A stretch of DNA of 64,000 nt from Bdellovibrionota bacterium. GTDB taxonomy: Bacteria; Bdellovibrionota; Bdellovibrionia; Bdellovibrionales; Bdellovibrionaceae. The stretch is taken from positions 1 through 64,000 of the forward strand of contig CAUJGP010000028.1 in the NCBI GenBank assembly GCA_963170155.1. The letters run 5' to 3'. The position numbers and the translations under genes were made by a program. Positions within the stretch are counted from its first letter, which is position 1. Every line of letters starts with the position of its first letter. The notes under the pieces are model-generated. The model worked only from the letters and a program-made list of their open reading frames with translations. It made no database searches and was not told the origin of the DNA. This document shows, piece by piece, positions 50,836-58,717 of the stretch.

Positions 50836-51519
50836 ATGTTGATCTTTAAAAGTGAAAATTTTCAAAAAAAATATCATCTTTATGTTTATCAACTCATACC
50901 TTCATTCACTCAGGATCCCAGCTCTTTTTTGTCTTTAGATGAATCTACTTTTTTTCAACAAATCACCAACTCGAGAAGGCAAAATGAGTATCTTCAATCC
51001 CGATATGCCCTGAAGAGCTTATTGTCCTCTCGATTGAAAGTGGCTCCTGCGGAAATTCATTTAAAAAAAATTGGCGAAGGCAAACCTGTTTTGGTAGATG
51101 ATTCTCTGTCGTTGGATTTTAACCTCTCCCACACTCAAGATATTTTTGCCATTGCAATTTCAGAACAGGGATTGGTGGGAGTTGATGTCGAAAAGGAACG
51201 CAGCCCTCGACATTTGGAGCGAATCGCGGAACGGTTTTTTTCTCCTCCAGAGACAAGGCTCATTCACCAAGAACAAAATCCCAAGCGCAAGATCGAAATT
51301 TTCATGCGCTTCTGGTCCGGTAAAGAAGCTCTTATCAAGACCATGGCTGGCGGCGTTTTTAAGAATGTTCATGATATTGTTATTGATGAGCATACTTGGA
51401 CAATTAAAAAGCTACCTGAAGGTTCTGGAGATCTTTCCACCTGGAGCCTAGATTATTACGATGCAATTCCTGGTTATGCTTGTAGTGTTGGCTTTAAAGA
51501 TTCCACTCCTAACCGATAA
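50836..51519 (+). CDS. 4'-Phosphopantetheinyl transferase (Sfp-like)
   Basis: A 227-residue Sfp-type transferase that attaches phosphopantetheine to carrier-protein serines. The motifs are present: FNLSHTQD, the metal-binding GVDVEKERSPRHLERIAERFFS and FWSGKEALIKTMAGG. Its gene converges with the nine-gene operon containing two carrier proteins, and is likely dedicated to them, since Sfp-type enzymes serve secondary-metabolite carrier proteins while AcpS serves fatty-acid synthesis. Confidence 0.92.
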   Translation: MLIFKSENFQKKYHLYVYQLIPSFTQDPSSFLSLDESTFFQQITNSRRQNEYLQSRYALKSLLSSRLKVAPAEIHLKKIGEGKPVLVDDSLSLDFNLSHTQDIFAIAISEQGLVGVDVEKERSPRHLERIAERFFSPPETRLIHQEQNPKRKIEIFMRFWSGKEALIKTMAGGVFKNVHDIVIDEHTWTIKKLPEGSGDLSTWSLDYYDAIPGYACSVGFKDSTPNR

Positions 51520-51666
51520 GGATAGGAGATTTTTCCTACTCTGAACACCCACGGAAATTATTCGCGTTCAATATAAAAAGGAACATGTATGTTTTTGCTG
51601 TATTGAACTCAAGTTGAACTACCAAAGAACATTCTACCCGGTAAAAATATTTATACTTGAAGAAAC

Positions 51667-51894
51667 TTAGCCTTTGCTATTTAAAACATTTATTAAATCA
51701 CCCACAGTTTTTACAGGAATAAGATCCTCTTGATTCAGTCTTACATTGAAAGTGTTCTGAAGATCAATCACCATATCAATCAGAATGAAAGAGTCCATCA
51801 CCAGCTCCTGAAGAATAGCCTCATCGGTGACTTTCTCAGAGGGAATCGCTAAAACTTGGCTGATGCGATTTTTAACTTTATTTGCGTCCAACAT
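51667..51894 (-). CDS. Acyl carrier protein (second carrier of the cluster)
   Basis: A 75-residue carrier protein with the phosphopantetheine site MDSF (Ser35) between helices I and II and a typical four-helix pattern (VKNRISQVL, then FILIDMVIDLQNTFNVRL, then VGDLINVLNS). Last gene of the operon, 18 bases after the ferritin-like gene. It differs from the carrier at 54438-54692, so each probably serves a distinct acyl or aminoacyl group. Confidence 0.9.
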   Translation of the reverse strand: MLDANKVKNRISQVLAIPSEKVTDEAILQELVMDSFILIDMVIDLQNTFNVRLNQEDLIPVKTVGDLINVLNSKG

Positions 51895-51912
51895 CTTACA
51901 ACCTCACTATTT

Positions 51913-52476
51913 TTAAAATTTTAGGATTCCACTGATACGCTCTTCGTGCTCTTTTACAGTTTTTTGGTAGACTTCTTTGTCAGCATCAGAGAAGTTCTTC
52001 AAAGTTTTATCTATGTGATCTTTGCCGTACTCTGCTTCCATGTTTTTGAGGGCTTGAGTCACCCATTCAATGTGCCACTTTTCATCTTCTACAATGAGAT
52101 CTAAAGTGCTTTTAATTTCTGGATGCAAGTCTTTAGCTTGACGATGAAGAGCATATTGGCCGATGACCCGCTTCTCAAAAACCAGGGTGATGCCCAAAAC
52201 CTCCATGATATTCGCGGGCATTCCTGCCGCGGATATATACTGATCCTGGTAAGCGGTCTCGAGCTTGATAGGTTCTACGCCAAGATTTTGCAAACAACGA
52301 GTCCAATACCAGGAGTGCTGGCTTTCATCAGCAAAGTGCTTTGTCAAATCTGTTTGAATGGGCCCAGGGGGCAAAGATTTTGCCAGACGCCCAAAGAAAA
52401 GAGCACCGGAAATCTCACTAGTACGGTAGAAGCTTAGGAGCCATCTCTGATTTTCTGTTAATGCCTCAAGTTTCAT
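51913..52476 (-). CDS. Ferritin-like diiron protein
   Basis: A 187-residue helical protein with the complete ferritin-like diiron ligand set: Glu21, Glu51/His54 (ESQH), Glu101 and Glu132/His135 (EKWH). It is closer in pattern to ferritin-like oxidases than to ferritin storage proteins. Its position in the operon, coupled to the SDR gene (4-base overlap), implies an oxidation or hydroxylation in the pathway. It is the second diiron protein there. Confidence 0.78.
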   Translation of the reverse strand: MKLEALTENQRWLLSFYRTSEISGALFFGRLAKSLPPGPIQTDLTKHFADESQHSWYWTRCLQNLGVEPIKLETAYQDQYISAAGMPANIMEVLGITLVFEKRVIGQYALHRQAKDLHPEIKSTLDLIVEDEKWHIEWVTQALKNMEAEYGKDHIDKTLKNFSDADKEVYQKTVKEHEERISGILKF

Positions 52477-53573
52477 GAATGCCCTCCTGAAGATTTTGCG
52501 AATCTAGTTTGAGCTAGATACTGACACGTCTTACGCACTATTTCCTCCATCGGAGGAGTTTGATAATTCACAAGTAAGCCTTGAAGGGCCTCGTTATGAA
52601 CTTCTTTTGCAATAAAGAGTTGGCGACCGAAAGGAGAAATACTAGCTAATCCCTGATTTAAAACACTGCCACCAAAGCCCTTCATATTCATGACCAATGT
52701 GTCGAAGGACTTCTCGTCAGTGAAAAGGGGCTTGAGCAAGCGACGTGCCTTGAACGTCTCATCCTTATTGAATTCTTCAAAGGCGACGTCAATAAAGCGT
52801 CCCAAAGAAATACTTGCGGTCTGATCATAGCAGACATGATAGATTTTGTGAGGTAAGCCTTTGTTTACAACAGCCGTCAAAGACGCTGCGGTGAACTCAC
52901 CATCCACGAGGTGAATGGGAGTTTCTGCTTTTCCAGGCAGAAGCGAAATCAAGCCATAATAAAATAACTTTAATGTATTGTGAATGGCATTATGTTGAAC
53001 GACGGTTCCAGAAACATCATCTGAAATCACTGTGGCCACGCGAGCGATTCTCCATGGAATATGAAAAAATCGAGTCCGCAAAGCTTCTTCCACTTCCCAC
53101 TTGGAGCGTTCATAGTGATTGGCAAATGATGGAAGTGAAATGAAATCTTCATGAATTGGGCCAGCGTTCATGCCAGAAGCGTAAAGAGTGCTAACATAAG
53201 TGAAATTTATCAAATGAGGCAACTCAGAGGCAAATTCCAAAAAACGAAGAGAGGCATCTCGATTCACAGAATTAGCCGTGATCTCATCAATGTTGAAGGC
53301 CGTTTTTGCAGCATTGTGAATGATAGTGGTAATATCTTCTCGGTAAGAATCCAAAGCTTGATTTAAGCCTTCGAGATCTGTGTTAAGAGGAATCACGCGA
53401 GAACGAAAATGGGGAGCGACTGGAACCATTAGTTTTTGGTAGCGTCTTTCTAATTCTTCGCGGGAAGAAGCGCGCACCGGAACAAGAATATCCTCGCTAC
53501 ACTCTTGAAGCAGGTGAAGTAAAAGTTTATGGCCGATATAGCCGGTGGCACCGGTTAAAACAATCTTAGACAT
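52473..53573 (-). CDS. Thioester-reductase-like SDR (male-sterility NAD-binding type)
   Basis: A 366-residue extended SDR with GATGYIG at residues 8-14, the IIHNAAKTAFNI block, VSTLYASG and the catalytic YxxxK (YERSKWE, Tyr near 153). Substrate-lobe features match the NAD-binding-4/thioester reductase group, which reduces carrier-protein thioesters or fatty acyl-CoA to aldehyde or alcohol. In this operon it is a good candidate for reductive product release, since no thioesterase is present. It overlaps the amino acid:carrier ligase gene by 8 bases. Confidence 0.85.
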   Translation of the reverse strand: MSKIVLTGATGYIGHKLLLHLLQECSEDILVPVRASSREELERRYQKLMVPVAPHFRSRVIPLNTDLEGLNQALDSYREDITTIIHNAAKTAFNIDEITANSVNRDASLRFLEFASELPHLINFTYVSTLYASGMNAGPIHEDFISLPSFANHYERSKWEVEEALRTRFFHIPWRIARVATVISDDVSGTVVQHNAIHNTLKLFYYGLISLLPGKAETPIHLVDGEFTAASLTAVVNKGLPHKIYHVCYDQTASISLGRFIDVAFEEFNKDETFKARRLLKPLFTDEKSFDTLVMNMKGFGGSVLNQGLASISPFGRQLFIAKEVHNEALQGLLVNYQTPPMEEIVRKTCQYLAQTRFAKSSGGHS

Positions 53574-54441
53574 TTTGAATCTCCGTCAAAGGCCAATGAG
53601 CGGGGTTCGTTCCGTAACGAGAGATGATGGCAAAAATCCAACGTTCAAGACCAAAAGCAATGCAGGCACTATGAGCAATTTCTCCTTGATATTTAATGCC
53701 AAAATTCTCACCGAAGTAATCTTTATGGAAATTAGTGGAGCCAATAGATAATTCCTTATTGAAAATCATCTCGTGCTTCACGGGGTCCAATTGCTGCATG
53801 ATGAATTTTGGATTGGATTCAGGATTGAAGAACGGATCCGTCGCCACATCCCATTCGATACCTAAATTTAATTTATGTAATTTTTCGGTTACGATATCCC
53901 GGAATTTTTTTACGAACTCGCGAACATAGTCATAAGGACCGAGACAAACGATTTCGCGCATGTTGAAGGACCATTGTCTTTGCAACGGCTTATAGAAGAG
54001 CTCGCGACGGAAGCAATGGGCCCGTGTTGTTAAATGTATGGGCTCTTGAAGATCCTGACCTTGAAGGTGAATATAGAAGTGATAGCAAGCCGCTGGTGTT
54101 AAGCAGTCGCAGACCTTGTCGATCTCCACGAGGTGAACCTGGCCAGAATCATCACAGCGAGGTCCATCAATAAATTTTTCTAAATTACCAGCCTTGTGCT
54201 GATCCAAGGCTACAGGAAAGCTGATCAAGTGGGGGAAAGATTTGAAATAGTCCAACTTATTCAGTTCATGGGCTTGAATAAAGGGAGGAAAGTAAAACTC
54301 GCGGGCCTGAGCTTGATCGGCAATTCTTAAGAACATACCGTCTAGAGCTTTAAAAAGATCTAGAACAGCGCCGCTGAAGTTGGATTGCCCATTAGGAATC
54401 CATCGATAGCCTGGAATCTCCAAGAATTTGATTTCACTCAC
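53566..54441 (-). CDS. Amino acid:[carrier protein] ligase (class II aminoacyl-tRNA synthetase-like)
   Basis: A 291-residue catalytic-domain-only relative of class II synthetases. Motif 2 reads HCFRRELFYKPLQRQWSFNMREIVCLG and motif 3 AFGLERWIFAII. Cys119, Glu163 and Cys260 occupy the three zinc-ligand positions described for atypical SerRS-like amino acid:carrier ligases (Cys-Glu-Cys, similar spacing). There is no tRNA-binding domain. Such enzymes adenylate an amino acid (Gly or Ala in characterised cases) and transfer it to a phosphopantetheine carrier. The carrier gene immediately upstream overlaps by 4 bases, a strong functional link. Confidence 0.88.
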   Translation of the reverse strand: MSEIKFLEIPGYRWIPNGQSNFSGAVLDLFKALDGMFLRIADQAQAREFYFPPFIQAHELNKLDYFKSFPHLISFPVALDQHKAGNLEKFIDGPRCDDSGQVHLVEIDKVCDCLTPAACYHFYIHLQGQDLQEPIHLTTRAHCFRRELFYKPLQRQWSFNMREIVCLGPYDYVREFVKKFRDIVTEKLHKLNLGIEWDVATDPFFNPESNPKFIMQQLDPVKHEMIFNKELSIGSTNFHKDYFGENFGIKYQGEIAHSACIAFGLERWIFAIISRYGTNPAHWPLTEIQNV

Positions 54442-54692
54442 GCCGGACTCCCAAAAAAAGAGGAATAGATGGTGTCAATAGAATTGAAAACACCTGGTTT
54501 GATATTTTTCAGATTAAAACGCGTCCCCTTCATTTTTTCTACTTCTAAGATGAGCTCCATCACGTGGAGTGAGCTCAAGATCCGGGTTTCCAAAAGATGA
54601 GTGTCAAACTTCAATTCAGAGTCCGTCACTTTTTTTGATTTCGTTAAAACCCATTGGCGCAGGACTTCTTTGATTTCTTGTTCGGTTTTCAT
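54438..54692 (-). CDS. Carrier protein, presumed partner of the amino acid ligase
   Basis: An 84-residue carrier protein. The phosphopantetheine site is SSLHVMEL (Ser41), with Ser in place of the usual Asp before the modified serine, followed by LILEVEKMKGTRFNL and the helix III-IV region. Its gene overlaps both the ligase gene and the diiron oxygenase gene by 4 bases, so it is the likely acceptor of the activated amino acid and may present it to the oxygenase. Confidence 0.88.
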   Translation of the reverse strand: MKTEQEIKEVLRQWVLTKSKKVTDSELKFDTHLLETRILSSLHVMELILEVEKMKGTRFNLKNIKPGVFNSIDTIYSSFFGSPA

Positions 54693-55552
54693 AATTCAAA
54701 GTTCTCCTCAATAATTCTACATTTTTTTAAATAATTTAAACTCGCACGAGATGCTGTAGCACGATGTTCTTTAGCTTTTGTACTCTCGAAAGTGCGAGAG
54801 ACTAAATCATAAGGATGAGCCAAACCCATATCGATATAGATGTCGGGATTGTAGTATTCCCTCCATGTGGTCATATAATAATTTTTAATGTATTCGCGAA
54901 CGCCCGCTAAAGTTTCTGTAGACCATTGAGGAGAATAAGTTTTAAACAAGTTATTAAGAATCACGCGACCAAATGCTAAATGACGAGCCTCATCTTCATG
55001 GTGATTGGCGTTGATTTCGCGGGATAAAGCCATCACACGCTCATCGCGAGCTGCCGTGACATTGTAATAATCAACGATCTCTTCGAATACGAAAACTTTA
55101 ATAAAGAACAGGAACTCCTCTTCTCCCTCAGCGTATTCACGGGGAAAAATGAGTTTGCGATCCGGATAGATCTTGCCCGCATACTTTTCGCAGAAAGTAC
55201 CAAAAAAGTACATATGCTTATTTTCTTCGTCGATAAAATGATGAATATAATCTGTCACATCGGCATCATTGTTATCATAAAGACGACGCGACAGACCTTC
55301 GAGCAAAGATTTTTCTCCGTGAACATTTAAACTAAAGAAGTTCACCGTTTCAAAAAAACTCAATGTCTGGCGTTGTTCTTCCGAAAGGGCTTCCCATTCG
55401 GAAGAACCATAAATCGAAATAAGCTCTGGGCTGGTGAACCAATTGCGACGATCCAAGGTTTCAGGAAATTTGATGTGTGTGAAGGGATTGTAAAATCCTT
55501 TGATGGATTGAGCTGTGAGTATTTTTGCAACTTTGGAAATATCTTGACTCAT
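54689..55552 (-). CDS. AurF-like diiron oxygenase
   Basis: A 287-residue helical diiron enzyme of the AurF (p-aminobenzoate N-oxygenase) family. Candidate ligands are Glu80 or Glu85, Glu110/His113 (ENKH), Glu157 or Glu158 (FEEIVDYYN), and His184-Glu188-His191 (HHEDEARH), which matches the seven-ligand AurF pattern including the extra histidine. AurF relatives in other clusters oxidise the amine of carrier-bound amino acids. Here the neighbouring carrier and amino-acid ligase suggest that an aminoacyl-carrier thioester is the substrate. Confidence 0.82.
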   Translation of the reverse strand: MSQDISKVAKILTAQSIKGFYNPFTHIKFPETLDRRNWFTSPELISIYGSSEWEALSEEQRQTLSFFETVNFFSLNVHGEKSLLEGLSRRLYDNNDADVTDYIHHFIDEENKHMYFFGTFCEKYAGKIYPDRKLIFPREYAEGEEEFLFFIKVFVFEEIVDYYNVTAARDERVMALSREINANHHEDEARHLAFGRVILNNLFKTYSPQWSTETLAGVREYIKNYYMTTWREYYNPDIYIDMGLAHPYDLVSRTFESTKAKEHRATASRASLNYLKKCRIIEENFEL

Positions 55553-55553
55553 A

Positions 55554-56504
55554 CTACACCTTCTCCAAAATGACGGCCTGCCAATTCAAACCAAATCCCG
55601 CCATGAAGAGTAAAAGCTTTTGACCCGATTTCACCATACCGTCCCTTTCAATTTGGACAAGATTGACAATGTTGTCAGAGCTGATGATGTGACCGACTTC
55701 TTTAATGGATTTAAAATAAACTTTTTCGAATTCTGTCCCTAAAAGACGAGAAAGAATCACCCAGGCATTGGTGTTGGTATTCTGAGGAACAATCCAATCG
55801 ATATCTTCGATGCCAATGTCAGATTTTTCAAAAAGCTCAGACAAAAGACGATGTGTATAACTAAAGTAGCTTCCCACAGTTTCATCATCGTTCGCTTGTG
55901 CCAAGGCTCCGTTCGTGATGGCGTGGCTGGCAATCAAGCGATAGCCTTTTTCTTCCGTACTCACAATACAGGTGGCCGCTCCATCAGAGATCACGTTATA
56001 AGCTTGTTCGTAAAGAGCGCCTTCTGGAAAACGATCCGCAGTGACACAAAGAATTTTCTTTTGATCTGGTTCTGACAGAATAAGAGCACGGGCTAGACGC
56101 AAAGAGCCCAACATGCTGGTGCAAGCCTGTTGATTCAGGCCTAATACAGCGGCATTTTCCATACCAAAATCAGCTTGTAAGTGACTCGCTGGATAATCCA
56201 TTAAGAACTTTACATCGCGACTTTCTTTAAATTTTGAGAAGGATCCAATATTGCCATTGAGAGGAAGACAAGTGGCATAAATAATCGAACTCACATCTTG
56301 CAATGTATGTTTGATCTGAGAAACGGCCCCCACAGCCAAATCATAGGCCGTTTGATTCGCAGAACTCATGCGGTGAAAAGCAAATCCCGCATCAATAAAT
56401 TGTTGAGCCTCTGTCAGAAGACGACCGTCCTGGAACGACTGTTTGATTGATACATTTTGATCACCCAGGAAGTAAGCTAGATCGTGAACATAGACAGATT
56501 TCAT
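55554..56504 (-). CDS. Ketosynthase III-like protein with altered active site
   Basis: A 316-residue thiolase-fold protein of the FabH (KAS III) group. The active-site Cys is Cys128 (NQQACTSML). The His-Gln-Ala-Asn segment of FabH is replaced by PQNTN (240-244), lacking the histidine. The GN(T/S)SA segment is GHIISSDNI with His272. The usual Cys-His-Asn triad is therefore altered, so the enzyme may transfer acyl groups to N or O nucleophiles or condense an unusual starter instead of normal fatty-acid initiation. The gene lies 4 bases from the methyltransferase gene. Confidence 0.85.
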   Translation of the reverse strand: MKSVYVHDLAYFLGDQNVSIKQSFQDGRLLTEAQQFIDAGFAFHRMSSANQTAYDLAVGAVSQIKHTLQDVSSIIYATCLPLNGNIGSFSKFKESRDVKFLMDYPASHLQADFGMENAAVLGLNQQACTSMLGSLRLARALILSEPDQKKILCVTADRFPEGALYEQAYNVISDGAATCIVSTEEKGYRLIASHAITNGALAQANDDETVGSYFSYTHRLLSELFEKSDIGIEDIDWIVPQNTNTNAWVILSRLLGTEFEKVYFKSIKEVGHIISSDNIVNLVQIERDGMVKSGQKLLLFMAGFGLNWQAVILEKV

Positions 56505-56507
56505 GAT

Positions 56508-57074
56508 CTAAACTCCAATCTTAGGGAAAAAGCGTCCTGTGGATTTAATGTAAGTCTGATATTCTGCACCGAAAGTGGAAGCAGACAGATTTTTTTCTTC
56601 GCGAGCGGCCGTGCGATTCAAAACCAATACACACCAGACTAAACCAATGATTGTGCTCCAGTGGGGAAGCAAAAGAACGGAAGCGATTTGTGCAGTAATG
56701 AAAGATGTATAGAAAGGGTGACGAATATATTTATAAGCACCCCATGTTACAATATTCATTGGTGCATCGTTGTTTTGGTGCCACAGAGCCAATGGAATAC
56801 GATGAGTTCCCATAGTGTAAGAAATCATACCGATAGAAAAAATTGATAAAATGAGAATCATCAACTCGTAAGCAAACAAAGCTGATGACCAGTAAGCTTC
56901 GAACTGAAATAAATCCGCTAAGTGCGCTAACAAAAGAGCCGCATTTAAAAACAAAGGCCCTGCTGTCATCCACCACATGAGGTTGTAACGACCATCTTTT
57001 TTGAAAAAGATGCGAGGAAGAATGCCGATATAGGCAAAGTTAACCAAAATTAGGGCAACAAGAGTTTTGTTCAT
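56508..57074 (-). CDS. Integral-membrane methyltransferase (ICMT-like)
   Basis: A 188-residue protein with about five membrane helices and the isoprenylcysteine-carboxyl-methyltransferase-type SAM-binding tail: YKYIRHPFYTSF near residue 117 and REEKNLSASTFGAEYQTYIKST near the end. Members methylate carboxylates or lipid head groups in the membrane. Its start overlaps the stop of the AMP-ligase gene by 4 bases. In the cluster it may methylate the product's carboxylate or hydroxyl, which would imply a lipid-like product. Confidence 0.82.
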   Translation of the reverse strand: MNKTLVALILVNFAYIGILPRIFFKKDGRYNLMWWMTAGPLFLNAALLLAHLADLFQFEAYWSSALFAYELMILILSIFSIGMISYTMGTHRIPLALWHQNNDAPMNIVTWGAYKYIRHPFYTSFITAQIASVLLLPHWSTIIGLVWCVLVLNRTAAREEKNLSASTFGAEYQTYIKSTGRFFPKIGV

Positions 57075-58717
57075 ACAGTAATCCTTTGTGCGATAAGTAG
57101 TTCTCGAACGAGATTTTTTTTAATTTTTAAAGTCGTTGTTTTTGGCAATGGTTCATTGAGGAAAACAAAACGAGTGGGTCGTTTATAATAGCTCATTTGC
57201 AATGAGGCTATTTGCAGCTTCTTTTGCATCTCCTCTTGGCTGACGTCTTTGCCATTGACGATCACCGCAGTGATAACTTCAGTTCCTTTGGTCGCTCCCT
57301 GGCTTGATTTCATACCGATAACGCAGACTTCTTGAATATCAGGGATACCCCGGAGATATTCTTCGATCTCTTCAGGAGCAACTTTTTTACCGCTACCCAA
57401 AACAATGATATCTTTATTGCGCCCTCGAATACTAAGAAAACCCTCTTCGTCAAATTGACCAACGTCTCCTGTGTTGAACCAACCGTCCGCGGAAAGACAA
57501 GCCAGAGTAGCTTCAGAATTTTTATAATAGCCTTTCATAACGTTACGGCCACGAACCAGGATTTCCTGAGAGACCGGATGCAGCTTCACTTCAAGGCCAG
57601 GAAGAGGTTTGCCAACACTCCCCGGCTTTTTATGTCCAGGACTGCTGCATGAAATCACGGGGGCGGTTTCTGTCATGCCGTAACCTTCAAAAACAGAAAT
57701 GCCGATCCTATCGAAGAAGTCTCCCACATGAAGATCTAAAGCCGAAGCTCCTGAAACAATTTGTCTAAGCTCGCCTCCCAATTTTTTGTGCAGTGGTTGA
57801 AAGAGGAAGGACCTAAATCTCTGGGACGGAATCCATTTTGCTAACTGCAAAGAAGAATAGAACCAAACTCTTTTCAGCACGGAAGAACGAACTTCTCCTT
57901 CAATGCCTTTCTTTAAAGCGCGAAGAATGAGTGGCACAACTAAAATATTGGTGATTTTATGTTGTCGGAAGAAAGAAATGATCTGCTGAGGAATCAAAGA
58001 GTTGCCATAATAGACACTGCCACCATGATAAAGTGGAACCAAAAAACCCGCCATAAGTTCAAACATGTGATGCAAAGGGAGCATTGAAAGCATACGCGTT
58101 TCTGATTTCGCACACATAAGGTGAGTTACTATTTCAATTTGATAGAAAATGTTGTCAAAGGTCAGCATCACAGCCTTCGGATGACTCGTAGTTCCCGACG
58201 TGAAAGACATCAAGAAAATCTCGTCGGCAGACAGGGGTTGAAGAAGAAAAGCTTCTTCGCTCAAAGTATTTTCTGCCATGAGGTCCTCGATAATGAGAAC
58301 TTGTAGCGCACGCTCGGTGGTCTCGGATAATTTTTCAGCTAACATCGTATAATCTTCGCGTAGACAGAAAAGAAATTTGGCTTCAGAAAAATCAGCAATA
58401 AACTTTTGATCGTTTAAACTCAGTCGGATGTCTAAGGGAACAATGATTCCGCCAGCCAAAGGAGTGGAAAAAAAAGCCACAGAAAATTCAGGAGCGGATT
58501 TTGAGAGGATAAGAACTTTATCATTTTTTTGCAGTCCCAAAGACAGGAGCTTGCGAGCCACTTTTTCTGATTGCTCACAAATATCCTGAAAAGATAGGGA
58601 TCTCCAAAAATCTCCTTGAGCCGAAACCGAACGACCCCATAAAGCGGGTTTAGCGCCATACTTTTGTGAGATTTCAACTAAGAAGGACTGTATATTCTTT
58701 TTCTTCACGTTTTCCAT
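57071..58717 (-). CDS. AMP-binding acyl-activating enzyme (fatty acyl-CoA/ACP ligase-like)
   Basis: A 548-residue ANL-superfamily ligase, the first gene of the operon. The phosphate loop is MSFTSGTTSHPKAVML (near residue 180); LPLHHMFELMAGFL, FEGYGMTETAPVISC, DGWFNTGDVG, GRNKDIIVLGSGKKVAPEEIEE and the C-terminal catalytic lysine (TLKIKK) are present. The segments match long-chain acyl-CoA synthetases, so a fatty acid is the probable substrate, activated to CoA or transferred to a carrier. The gene lies about 360 bases from the nearest minus-strand ORF, a region holding the likely operon promoter. Confidence 0.9.
   Translation of the reverse strand: MENVKKKNIQSFLVEISQKYGAKPALWGRSVSAQGDFWRSLSFQDICEQSEKVARKLLSLGLQKNDKVLILSKSAPEFSVAFFSTPLAGGIIVPLDIRLSLNDQKFIADFSEAKFLFCLREDYTMLAEKLSETTERALQVLIIEDLMAENTLSEEAFLLQPLSADEIFLMSFTSGTTSHPKAVMLTFDNIFYQIEIVTHLMCAKSETRMLSMLPLHHMFELMAGFLVPLYHGGSVYYGNSLIPQQIISFFRQHKITNILVVPLILRALKKGIEGEVRSSVLKRVWFYSSLQLAKWIPSQRFRSFLFQPLHKKLGGELRQIVSGASALDLHVGDFFDRIGISVFEGYGMTETAPVISCSSPGHKKPGSVGKPLPGLEVKLHPVSQEILVRGRNVMKGYYKNSEATLACLSADGWFNTGDVGQFDEEGFLSIRGRNKDIIVLGSGKKVAPEEIEEYLRGIPDIQEVCVIGMKSSQGATKGTEVITAVIVNGKDVSQEEMQKKLQIASLQMSYYKRPTRFVFLNEPLPKTTTLKIKKNLVRELLIAQRITV

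What the first reader, a model, noticed from the sequence alone, without database searches (positions are those of the whole stretch)
50836..58717. Unassigned biosynthetic operon: aaRS-like amino acid:carrier ligase, AurF-like oxygenase, KAS III, thioester reductase and two carriers
Nine minus-strand genes, most overlapping by 4-8 bases, encode an acyl-activating ligase, membrane methyltransferase, KAS III-like enzyme, AurF-like diiron oxygenase, carrier protein, amino acid:[carrier protein] ligase, reductase SDR, ferritin-like diiron protein and a second carrier. A Sfp-type transferase gene converges on them. Families are seen from motifs; the pathway is inferred. A likely logic is that an amino acid (Gly or Ala by family precedent) is loaded on carrier 54438, its amine is oxidised by the AurF-like enzyme, an activated fatty acid is joined by the KAS III-like enzyme, and the product is released by reduction and methylated in the membrane. 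Related logic with NRPS loading is known for pvf/ham-type signals, but this NRPS-free layout is not one I recognise. A lipid-like N-oxygenated signal or toxin is possible.
Basis: partly seen in the sequence, partly recalled or inferred. Interest (0 to 1): 0.88.

Follow-up and report, generated by a model that had tools for sequence, protein, structure and literature searches.

The report
NRPS-free N-oxygenated lipid biosynthesis operon
This is a real, undescribed natural-product gene cluster, found in the same form in rare bacteria from about nine phyla, that most likely loads an amino acid on a carrier protein, oxidises its nitrogen, joins it to a fatty acid and releases an exported lipid; its product is unknown.

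Summary
The nine genes are real and form one unit. The same set, largely in the same order, occurs in a sister genus (62-91% identity) and in about 27 further loci of roughly nine phyla, and is rare (3 of 369 genomes in its phylum). The ligase is an aaRS-like amino acid:[carrier] ligase with its zinc ligands. Five cluster-bearing genomes that lack it all carry a stand-alone NRPS adenylation domain instead; five that have it carry none; the swap occurred at least twice. This is strong genetic evidence for amino-acid loading. The AurF-like enzyme keeps its metal ligands plus the extra His that marks diiron N-oxygenases. One correction: the 'KAS III' lost FabH's His and Asn and has the Cys-His-Asp triad of CerJ/ChlB3 acyltransferases, so acyl transfer is likelier than C-C joining. 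Co-divergence splits the operon into {AurF, ligase, carrier 1, reductase} and {ferritin-like, carrier 2}, with KAS linked to both. It works like ham/pvf (AurF plus A-T-R NRPS) taken apart, with a lipid arm and MMPL or Lol-type exporters nearby. Product, amino acid and oxidation state are unknown; no paper found describes it.

The parts
57071..58717 (-). AMP-binding ligase (FadD/acyl-CoA ligase-like), presumed fatty-acid activation; first gene of the operon; slot filled by ligases with a FAAL-like (DIP2-like) C-domain in L032 and L050
   Evidence: Pfam AMP-binding 1.9e-66; L004 homologue 63%; FAAL-like replacements
56508..57074 (-). ICMT/PEMT-like integral membrane methyltransferase; fused to an MMPL exporter in L015, L018, L025
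   Evidence: ICMT 3.6e-7; fusion L018:1050-4118
55554..56504 (-). KAS III-fold acyltransferase; C128/H272/D277 triad, FabH His and Asn replaced by Q241 and H272
   Evidence: AF2 model pLDDT 92 and Foldseek to FabH/ChlB3/DpsC, TM about 0.8
54689..55552 (-). AurF-family diiron N-oxygenase with the seven-residue signature E68, E110xxH113, E157, H184xxxE188xxH191
   Evidence: PF11583 2.6e-30; residues invariant in 25/25 operon copies and in all 13 rows of a wider alignment; weak HMM hits to AurF and CmlI structures
54438..54692 (-). Carrier protein 1 (amino-acid carrier), phosphopantetheine Ser41, without the usual Asp before the Ser
   Evidence: Ser41 invariant in 25 copies; lies between AurF and the ligase (or reductase) in the operon family
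53566..54441 (-). aaRS-like amino acid:[carrier protein] ligase (GTG start), zinc ligands C119, E147, C260
   Evidence: Bll0957 structures 3.3e-37; residues; replaced by an NRPS A-domain in five genomes
52473..53573 (-). NAD(P)H thioester reductase (R-domain-like SDR), TGxxGxxG, Y154-x3-K158
   Evidence: NAD_binding_4 1.8e-28; TIGR01746 9.5e-22, below its curated cut-off
51913..52476 (-). Ferritin-like diiron protein, new subfamily; ligands E21, E51xxH54, E101, E132xxH135; Ile128 where N-oxygenases have the extra His; best single marker of the cluster
   Evidence: 28/28 copies; AF2 pLDDT 91; weak Foldseek hits to aldehyde-deformylating oxygenase, PaaA, CmlI, MiaE
51667..51894 (-). Acyl carrier protein 2 (DSF motif, Ser35), presumed fatty-acyl carrier
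   Evidence: PP-binding 5.4e-9; co-diverges with the ferritin-like protein, partial r 0.69
50836..51519 (+). Sfp-type phosphopantetheinyl transferase, convergent here, inside the operon (between reductase and ferritin-like gene) in most relatives
   Evidence: ACPS 4.7e-16; position in relatives; only such gene found in the genome

Best explanation
The operon makes an N-oxygenated, lipidated amino-acid derivative without any NRPS. (1) The aaRS-like ligase charges carrier 1 with an amino acid. (2) The AurF-like diiron enzyme oxidises its amine on the carrier, to hydroxylamine or further. (3) The FadD-like ligase activates a fatty acid that reaches carrier 2, where the ferritin-like diiron protein may modify the chain. 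(4) The KAS III-fold protein, a Cys-His-Asp acyltransferase, moves the acyl group onto the N- or O-nucleophile of the carrier-1 intermediate. (5) The R-domain-like reductase releases an aldehyde or alcohol. (6) The membrane methyltransferase caps it and the lipid leaves the inner membrane. Shown: genes, families, active-site residues, cross-phylum linkage, ligase/A-domain interchange. Inferred: order of steps, substrates, oxidation state, whether KAS joins the two carriers, product.
For: Nine-gene synteny in L004, 62-91% identity, with different flanks. About 27 loci with the same core in about nine phyla. Ligase absent from the operon in L015, L018, L019, L022, L025; those five genomes hold exactly one strong match each to a stand-alone A-domain, and five ligase genomes hold none at 1e-60; the tree needs at least two changes. 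AurF seven-residue signature invariant, extra His diagnostic of N-oxygenases (PMC13061610). AurF-carrier-ligase sets recur on Streptomyces, Tistrella and Agrobacterium replicons, with a nitronate monooxygenase gene in the same run in three of four. KAS C128/H272/D277 match ChlB3 C113/H296/D301. Co-divergence blocks {AurF, ligase, carrier 1, reductase} and {ferritin-like, carrier 2}, KAS linked to both. MMPL exporters next to or fused in several loci, ABC/FtsX/LolA-like set in L004 and L007/L026.
Against: No biochemistry, no product, no substrate. The A-domain specificity residues match no code I know. Carrier-to-carrier acyl transfer rests on active-site analogy at 16-20% identity. Co-divergence blocks partly coincide with gene adjacency, so shared transfer history could produce them. 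The activating ligase co-diverges poorly with the rest. G373 also holds a distant ligase homologue (2.5e-24). Nearly all relatives are metagenome-assembled genomes, so taxonomic labels may include binning errors.
Confidence: 0.55

Rival explanations
1. As above, but the KAS III-like protein makes a C-C bond between an activated fatty acid and the carrier-bound (for example nitro-stabilised) carbon nucleophile, giving a ketone or nitro-ketone lipid.
For: The fold is as close to FabH as to ChlB3/DpsC. DpsC condenses with an altered triad (PMC9573744). A nitroacyl thioester, as the nitronate monooxygenase neighbours of related triads hint, would be acidic enough to need no decarboxylation.
Against: FabH His244 and Asn274 equivalents are Gln and His in 24/24 copies, and the Cys-His-Asp spacing equals CerJ/ChlB3.
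Confidence: 0.22
2. The AurF-like enzyme and the reductase make an amino-aldehyde or nitrone that dimerises to a pyrazine N-oxide or gives a diazeniumdiolate, as in pvf/ham, and the lipid genes build a separate moiety or membrane anchor.
For: Same functional set as HamC plus HamD (A-T-R) (PMC11659414, PMC5878181); co-divergence block {AurF, ligase, carrier 1, reductase}.
Against: No recognisable counterpart of the other ham proteins (heme-oxygenase-like, cupin, cyclase, starter C domain, aminotransferase) among the ten genes; KAS and the lipid genes accompany the block in the complete loci.
Confidence: 0.13
3. The reductase and the ferritin-like protein act on the fatty acyl chain (acyl-ACP reductase plus aldehyde-deformylating-like oxygenase), so the product is a hydrocarbon or shortened lipid and the amino-acid branch is an accessory.
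For: The best Foldseek hit of the ferritin-like model is aldehyde-deformylating oxygenase (E 3.8e-3, TM 0.66).
Against: That hit is weak and followed closely by PaaA, CmlI, MiaE and storage ferritins; the reductase co-diverges with the AurF/ligase block and not with ferritin-like/carrier 2 (partial r -0.07 and -0.04).
Confidence: 0.07

Closest known systems
ham/mgo/pvf clusters (fragin, valdiazen, pyrazine N-oxides)
   Same: Carrier-tethered amino acid oxidised by an AurF-family N-oxygenase (HamC/PvfB) and released by a reductase domain (HamD is A-T-R); ham also adds a fatty acyl group (PMC11659414, PMC5878181).
   Different: No NRPS: ligase, carrier and reductase are separate proteins; acyl transfer by a KAS III-fold protein instead of a starter C domain; two carriers, a second, ferritin-like diiron protein, membrane methyltransferase, lipid exporters; no counterpart seen of HamA, HamB, HamE, HamF or HamG.
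aaRS-like amino acid:[carrier protein] ligases (Bll0957 type)
   Same: Same fold family (3.3e-37 to 3mey), zinc ligands kept, sits beside a small carrier.
   Different: Below the NCBIfam equivalog cut-off (139.5 against 357 bits); tied to an AurF-type oxygenase.
CerJ/ChlB3/DpsC KAS III-like acyltransferases
   Same: Fold and Cys-His-Asp residues; ChlB3 moves an acyl group between two discrete carriers (PMC9573744).
   Different: About 16-18% identity to ChlB3/DpsC structures; FabH-His position is Gln; unknown acceptor.
Triacsin/azaserine/dob hydrazone-diazo pathways
   Same: Carrier-bound N-functional glycine derivative; AurF-like diiron N-oxidase in dob (PMC13061610).
   Different: None of the lysine N-hydroxylase, MetRS-cupin or hydrazone-forming genes is present.

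Membership tests
ham/pvf-type N-oxygenation clusters | AurF-family N-oxygenase | tested here: met
   PF11583 2.6e-30, seven-residue signature invariant
ham/pvf-type N-oxygenation clusters | A-T-R NRPS (HamD/PvfC) that loads and reductively releases the amino acid | tested here: not met
   No NRPS gene; separate ligase (or A-domain), carrier and reductase do the equivalent
ham/pvf-type N-oxygenation clusters | HamA/HamE-type partners (heme-oxygenase-like, polyketide cyclase-like) | tested here: not met
   None among the operon genes by Pfam and NCBIfam
Amino acid:[carrier protein] ligases | Class II SerRS-like core with Cys/Glu/Cys zinc site and small carrier partner | tested here: met
Amino acid:[carrier protein] ligases | Aminoacylation of a carrier with a small amino acid | not testable with these tools
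   Needs enzyme assay; supported only by A-domain interchange
Diiron N-oxygenases (AurF/CmlI) | Seventh His ligand beyond the six of ferritin-like oxygenases | tested here: met
   H184 in 25/25 operon copies and all 13 rows of a wider alignment; criterion from PMC13061610
FabH-type KAS III condensing enzymes | Cys-His-Asn triad | tested here: not met
   Cys kept, His to Gln241, Asn to His272 in 24/24
CerJ/ChlB3-type acyltransferases | Cys-His-Asp triad at aligned positions | tested here: met
   C128, H272, D277 align with ChlB3 C113, H296, D301
CerJ/ChlB3-type acyltransferases | Acyl transfer activity to O, N or carrier thiol | not testable with these tools
   No assay
Thioester reductase domains | NAD_binding_4 with Tyr-x3-Lys and glycine-rich motif | tested here: met
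   1.8e-28; Y154/K158 in 26/26 ungapped; TIGR01746 matched below its cut-off
Hydrazone/diazo pathways (triacsin, azaserine, dob) | Hydrazinoacetate-forming enzyme set | tested here: not met
   None among the operon genes

The most novel reading that the evidence does not exclude
A whole, undescribed class of exported N-oxygenated lipoamino acids (for example N-acyl-N-hydroxy amino aldehydes/alcohols or nitro-lipids), made by a two-carrier, NRPS-free assembly line in which a repurposed tRNA-synthetase charges the nitrogen carrier and a KAS III-fold acyltransferase joins it to a lipid carrier, shared by transfer among about nine phyla of mostly uncultured bacteria.
Probability: 0.42. Interest if true: 0.85.

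Novelty: new variant of a known kind. Interest (0 to 1): 0.72.

Why it matters
It gives one group of the aaRS-like amino acid:carrier ligases, whose cellular roles are largely unknown to my knowledge, a concrete partner set and a testable reaction; it shows the ham/pvf logic in dissociated form, so each step can be assayed with small soluble proteins; and it marks a lipid natural-product family that genome miners would easily miss because it holds no NRPS, no modular PKS and weakly annotated carriers.

Tried and rejected
Single-protein scan of genome contigs with the ligase found nothing; an alignment of the ferritin-like protein worked. E80 was first taken as the AurF first metal ligand; several wider relatives have Ile there while E68 is universal, so E68 is the better candidate and no ligand loss is claimed. 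Sequence search could not tie the ferritin-like protein to a solved enzyme family, and Foldseek gave no hit at E <= 0.001. A reading of the A-domain specificity residues by eye from the motifs (D-L-H-F-F/L-C-L-I-A) fits no code I know, so no amino acid is predicted. No copy of the marker gene on plasmids. The literature searches, ten in all, found no description of this gene set. The promoter and terminator scan gave fewer sites than shuffles and was not used; G+C content is like the surroundings, so no recent acquisition is visible from composition.
Full report
Observation. The region holds nine minus-strand genes in one tight run (58717 to 51667) and a convergent PPTase gene (50836-51519), as described. 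Five of eight junctions overlap by 4 or 8 bases. HMM searches support each family assignment at the level given under 'parts'. Carrier 1 has no Pfam hit, but its Ser41 is invariant in 25 relatives. The PPTase is the only one of its kind found in the genome.

Conservation. In a sister genus (L004) all nine genes lie in the same order at 62-91% protein identity while flanking genes differ. In another family of the phylum (L007/L026) the same genes occur at 36-65% identity with the PPTase inside the operon. A scan of 84,980 species genomes with an alignment of the ferritin-like protein gave 26 loci, all from metagenome-assembled genomes. A script mapped the genes on them: the common order is AMP ligase, methyltransferase, KAS, AurF, carrier 1, ligase, reductase, PPTase, ferritin-like, carrier 2. 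Titles and taxonomy place them in Bdellovibrionota, Pseudomonadota, Myxococcota, Omnitrophota, Melainabacteria, Acidobacteriota, Actinomycetota, Fidelibacterota and Nitrospirota. A further locus was found in a random class sample. The cluster is rare: the AurF query matched 4 of 369 genomes in the phylum, three of them with the cluster, and the ferritin-like query matched 1 of 368 other genomes in the class sample of G370. Composition of the loci and the tree are consistent with a unit that moves between lineages.

Amino-acid loading. The ligase matches the Bll0957 structures at 3.3e-37 and keeps the zinc ligands C119, E147 and C260. Five genomes lack it in the operon: L015, L018, L022, L025 and L019. 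Each of these genomes holds exactly one strong match to a stand-alone NRPS adenylation domain (1e-68 or better); in four it lies within a few kilobases of the operon, and the two scanned pass the curated TIGR01733 cut-off. Five genomes with the ligase hold none at 1e-60, and four of the five A-domain genomes have no ligase homologue anywhere, the fifth only a distant one. The exact probability of such a split by chance is 1 in 252, though three of the five are close relatives; the tree needs at least two changes. I take this as the strongest single piece of evidence that an amino acid is loaded on carrier 1.

N-oxidation. Seven residues (E68, E110, H113, E157, H184, E188, H191) are invariant in 25 operon copies and in all 13 rows of a wider alignment, matching the six metal ligands plus the extra His that PMC13061610 calls characteristic of ferritin-like-diiron N-oxygenases. 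The profile reaches AurF and CmlI structures weakly. AurF-carrier-ligase sets occur on replicons of Streptomyces (two), Tistrella and Agrobacterium without KAS, reductase or ferritin-like homologues detected nearby. In three of these four a nitronate monooxygenase gene lies in the same run, which points to nitro or nitronate chemistry in those relatives; whether the operon here goes that far is not known.

KAS III-like protein. The Cys is invariant but the FabH His and Asn are Gln241 and His272; His272 and Asp277 align with His296 and Asp301 of ChlB3. ChlB3 moves an acyl group between two discrete carriers and CerJ makes esters (PMC9573744). The AF2 model (pLDDT 92) is as close to ChlB3 and DpsC as to FabH. 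Acyl transfer is therefore the better reading; C-C bond formation is kept as a rival.

Two carriers, two arms. Partial rank correlations of identity matrices, given the mean of the other genes, are high within AurF-ligase (0.62), carrier 1-ligase (0.62), AurF-reductase (0.55), AurF-carrier 1 (0.45) and ferritin-like-carrier 2 (0.69), and near zero across the two groups; KAS shows moderate links to both (AurF 0.28, ferritin-like 0.35, carrier 2 0.25). Adjacent genes tend to share history, so this is suggestive only. The ferritin-like protein keeps six ligands with Ile at the extra-His position in 28/28 copies, so it is unlikely to be a second N-oxygenase; its closest structures are aldehyde-deformylating oxygenases, weakly.

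Export. The methyltransferase is fused to an MMPL exporter in three gammaproteobacterial loci, MMPL genes neighbour the operon in L010, L028, L030 and L050, and ABC/FtsX/LolA-like sets follow it in L004 and L007/L026. The window's genome carries a similar Lol-like set elsewhere. This suggests a lipid delivered out of the inner membrane.

Comparison. HamD of the ham cluster is an A-T-R NRPS; HamC, an AurF homologue, oxidises the tethered valine; HamF is a starter condensation domain that acylates (PMC5878181, PMC11659414). The operon supplies the same functions as separate proteins, with a different loader and a different acyl-joining enzyme. It works like ham/pvf but fails the NRPS membership test, and adds a lipid arm. 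I rate it a new variant of a known kind; if the product is a new lipid class the interest would be higher. No paper found in the searches of the held library describes it, but that library lacks most subscription journals.

Noticed in passing
L036:8757-12042, L038:8863-11811, L044:7085-9723: AurF-carrier-aaRS-like-ligase sets with nitronate monooxygenase genes on Tistrella, Streptomyces and Agrobacterium vitis replicons: a reusable amino-acid N-oxidation cassette in other clusters.
   Followed up: partly
L015:904-3987, L018:1050-4118, L025:1015-4080: ICMT-like methyltransferase fused to an MMPL/RND-type exporter in one protein of about 1020 aa.
   Followed up: partly
L018:10777-13623 and L025:10982-13750: Fatty-acid desaturase, PF10118 metal hydrolase and an unassigned protein follow the operon in L018; ORFs of similar size lie at the same place in L025.
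   Followed up: no
L037:10001-10792: A more distant aaRS-like ligase homologue (33%) on the Streptomyces clavuligerus megaplasmid, without an AurF homologue within 10 kb.
   Followed up: no
L008:3287-4162: A lone AurF homologue (28-31%) in a same-order genome, without the other cluster genes on its short contig.
   Followed up: partly
L051:4080-8219 (G000:C6): Own genome holds an ABC-FtsX-LolA-FtsX set like the one downstream of the operon in L004, unlinked to the operon.
   Followed up: partly
L030:13025: The script flagged a second ORF similar to the ferritin-like marker; not checked, may be a spurious match.
   Followed up: no
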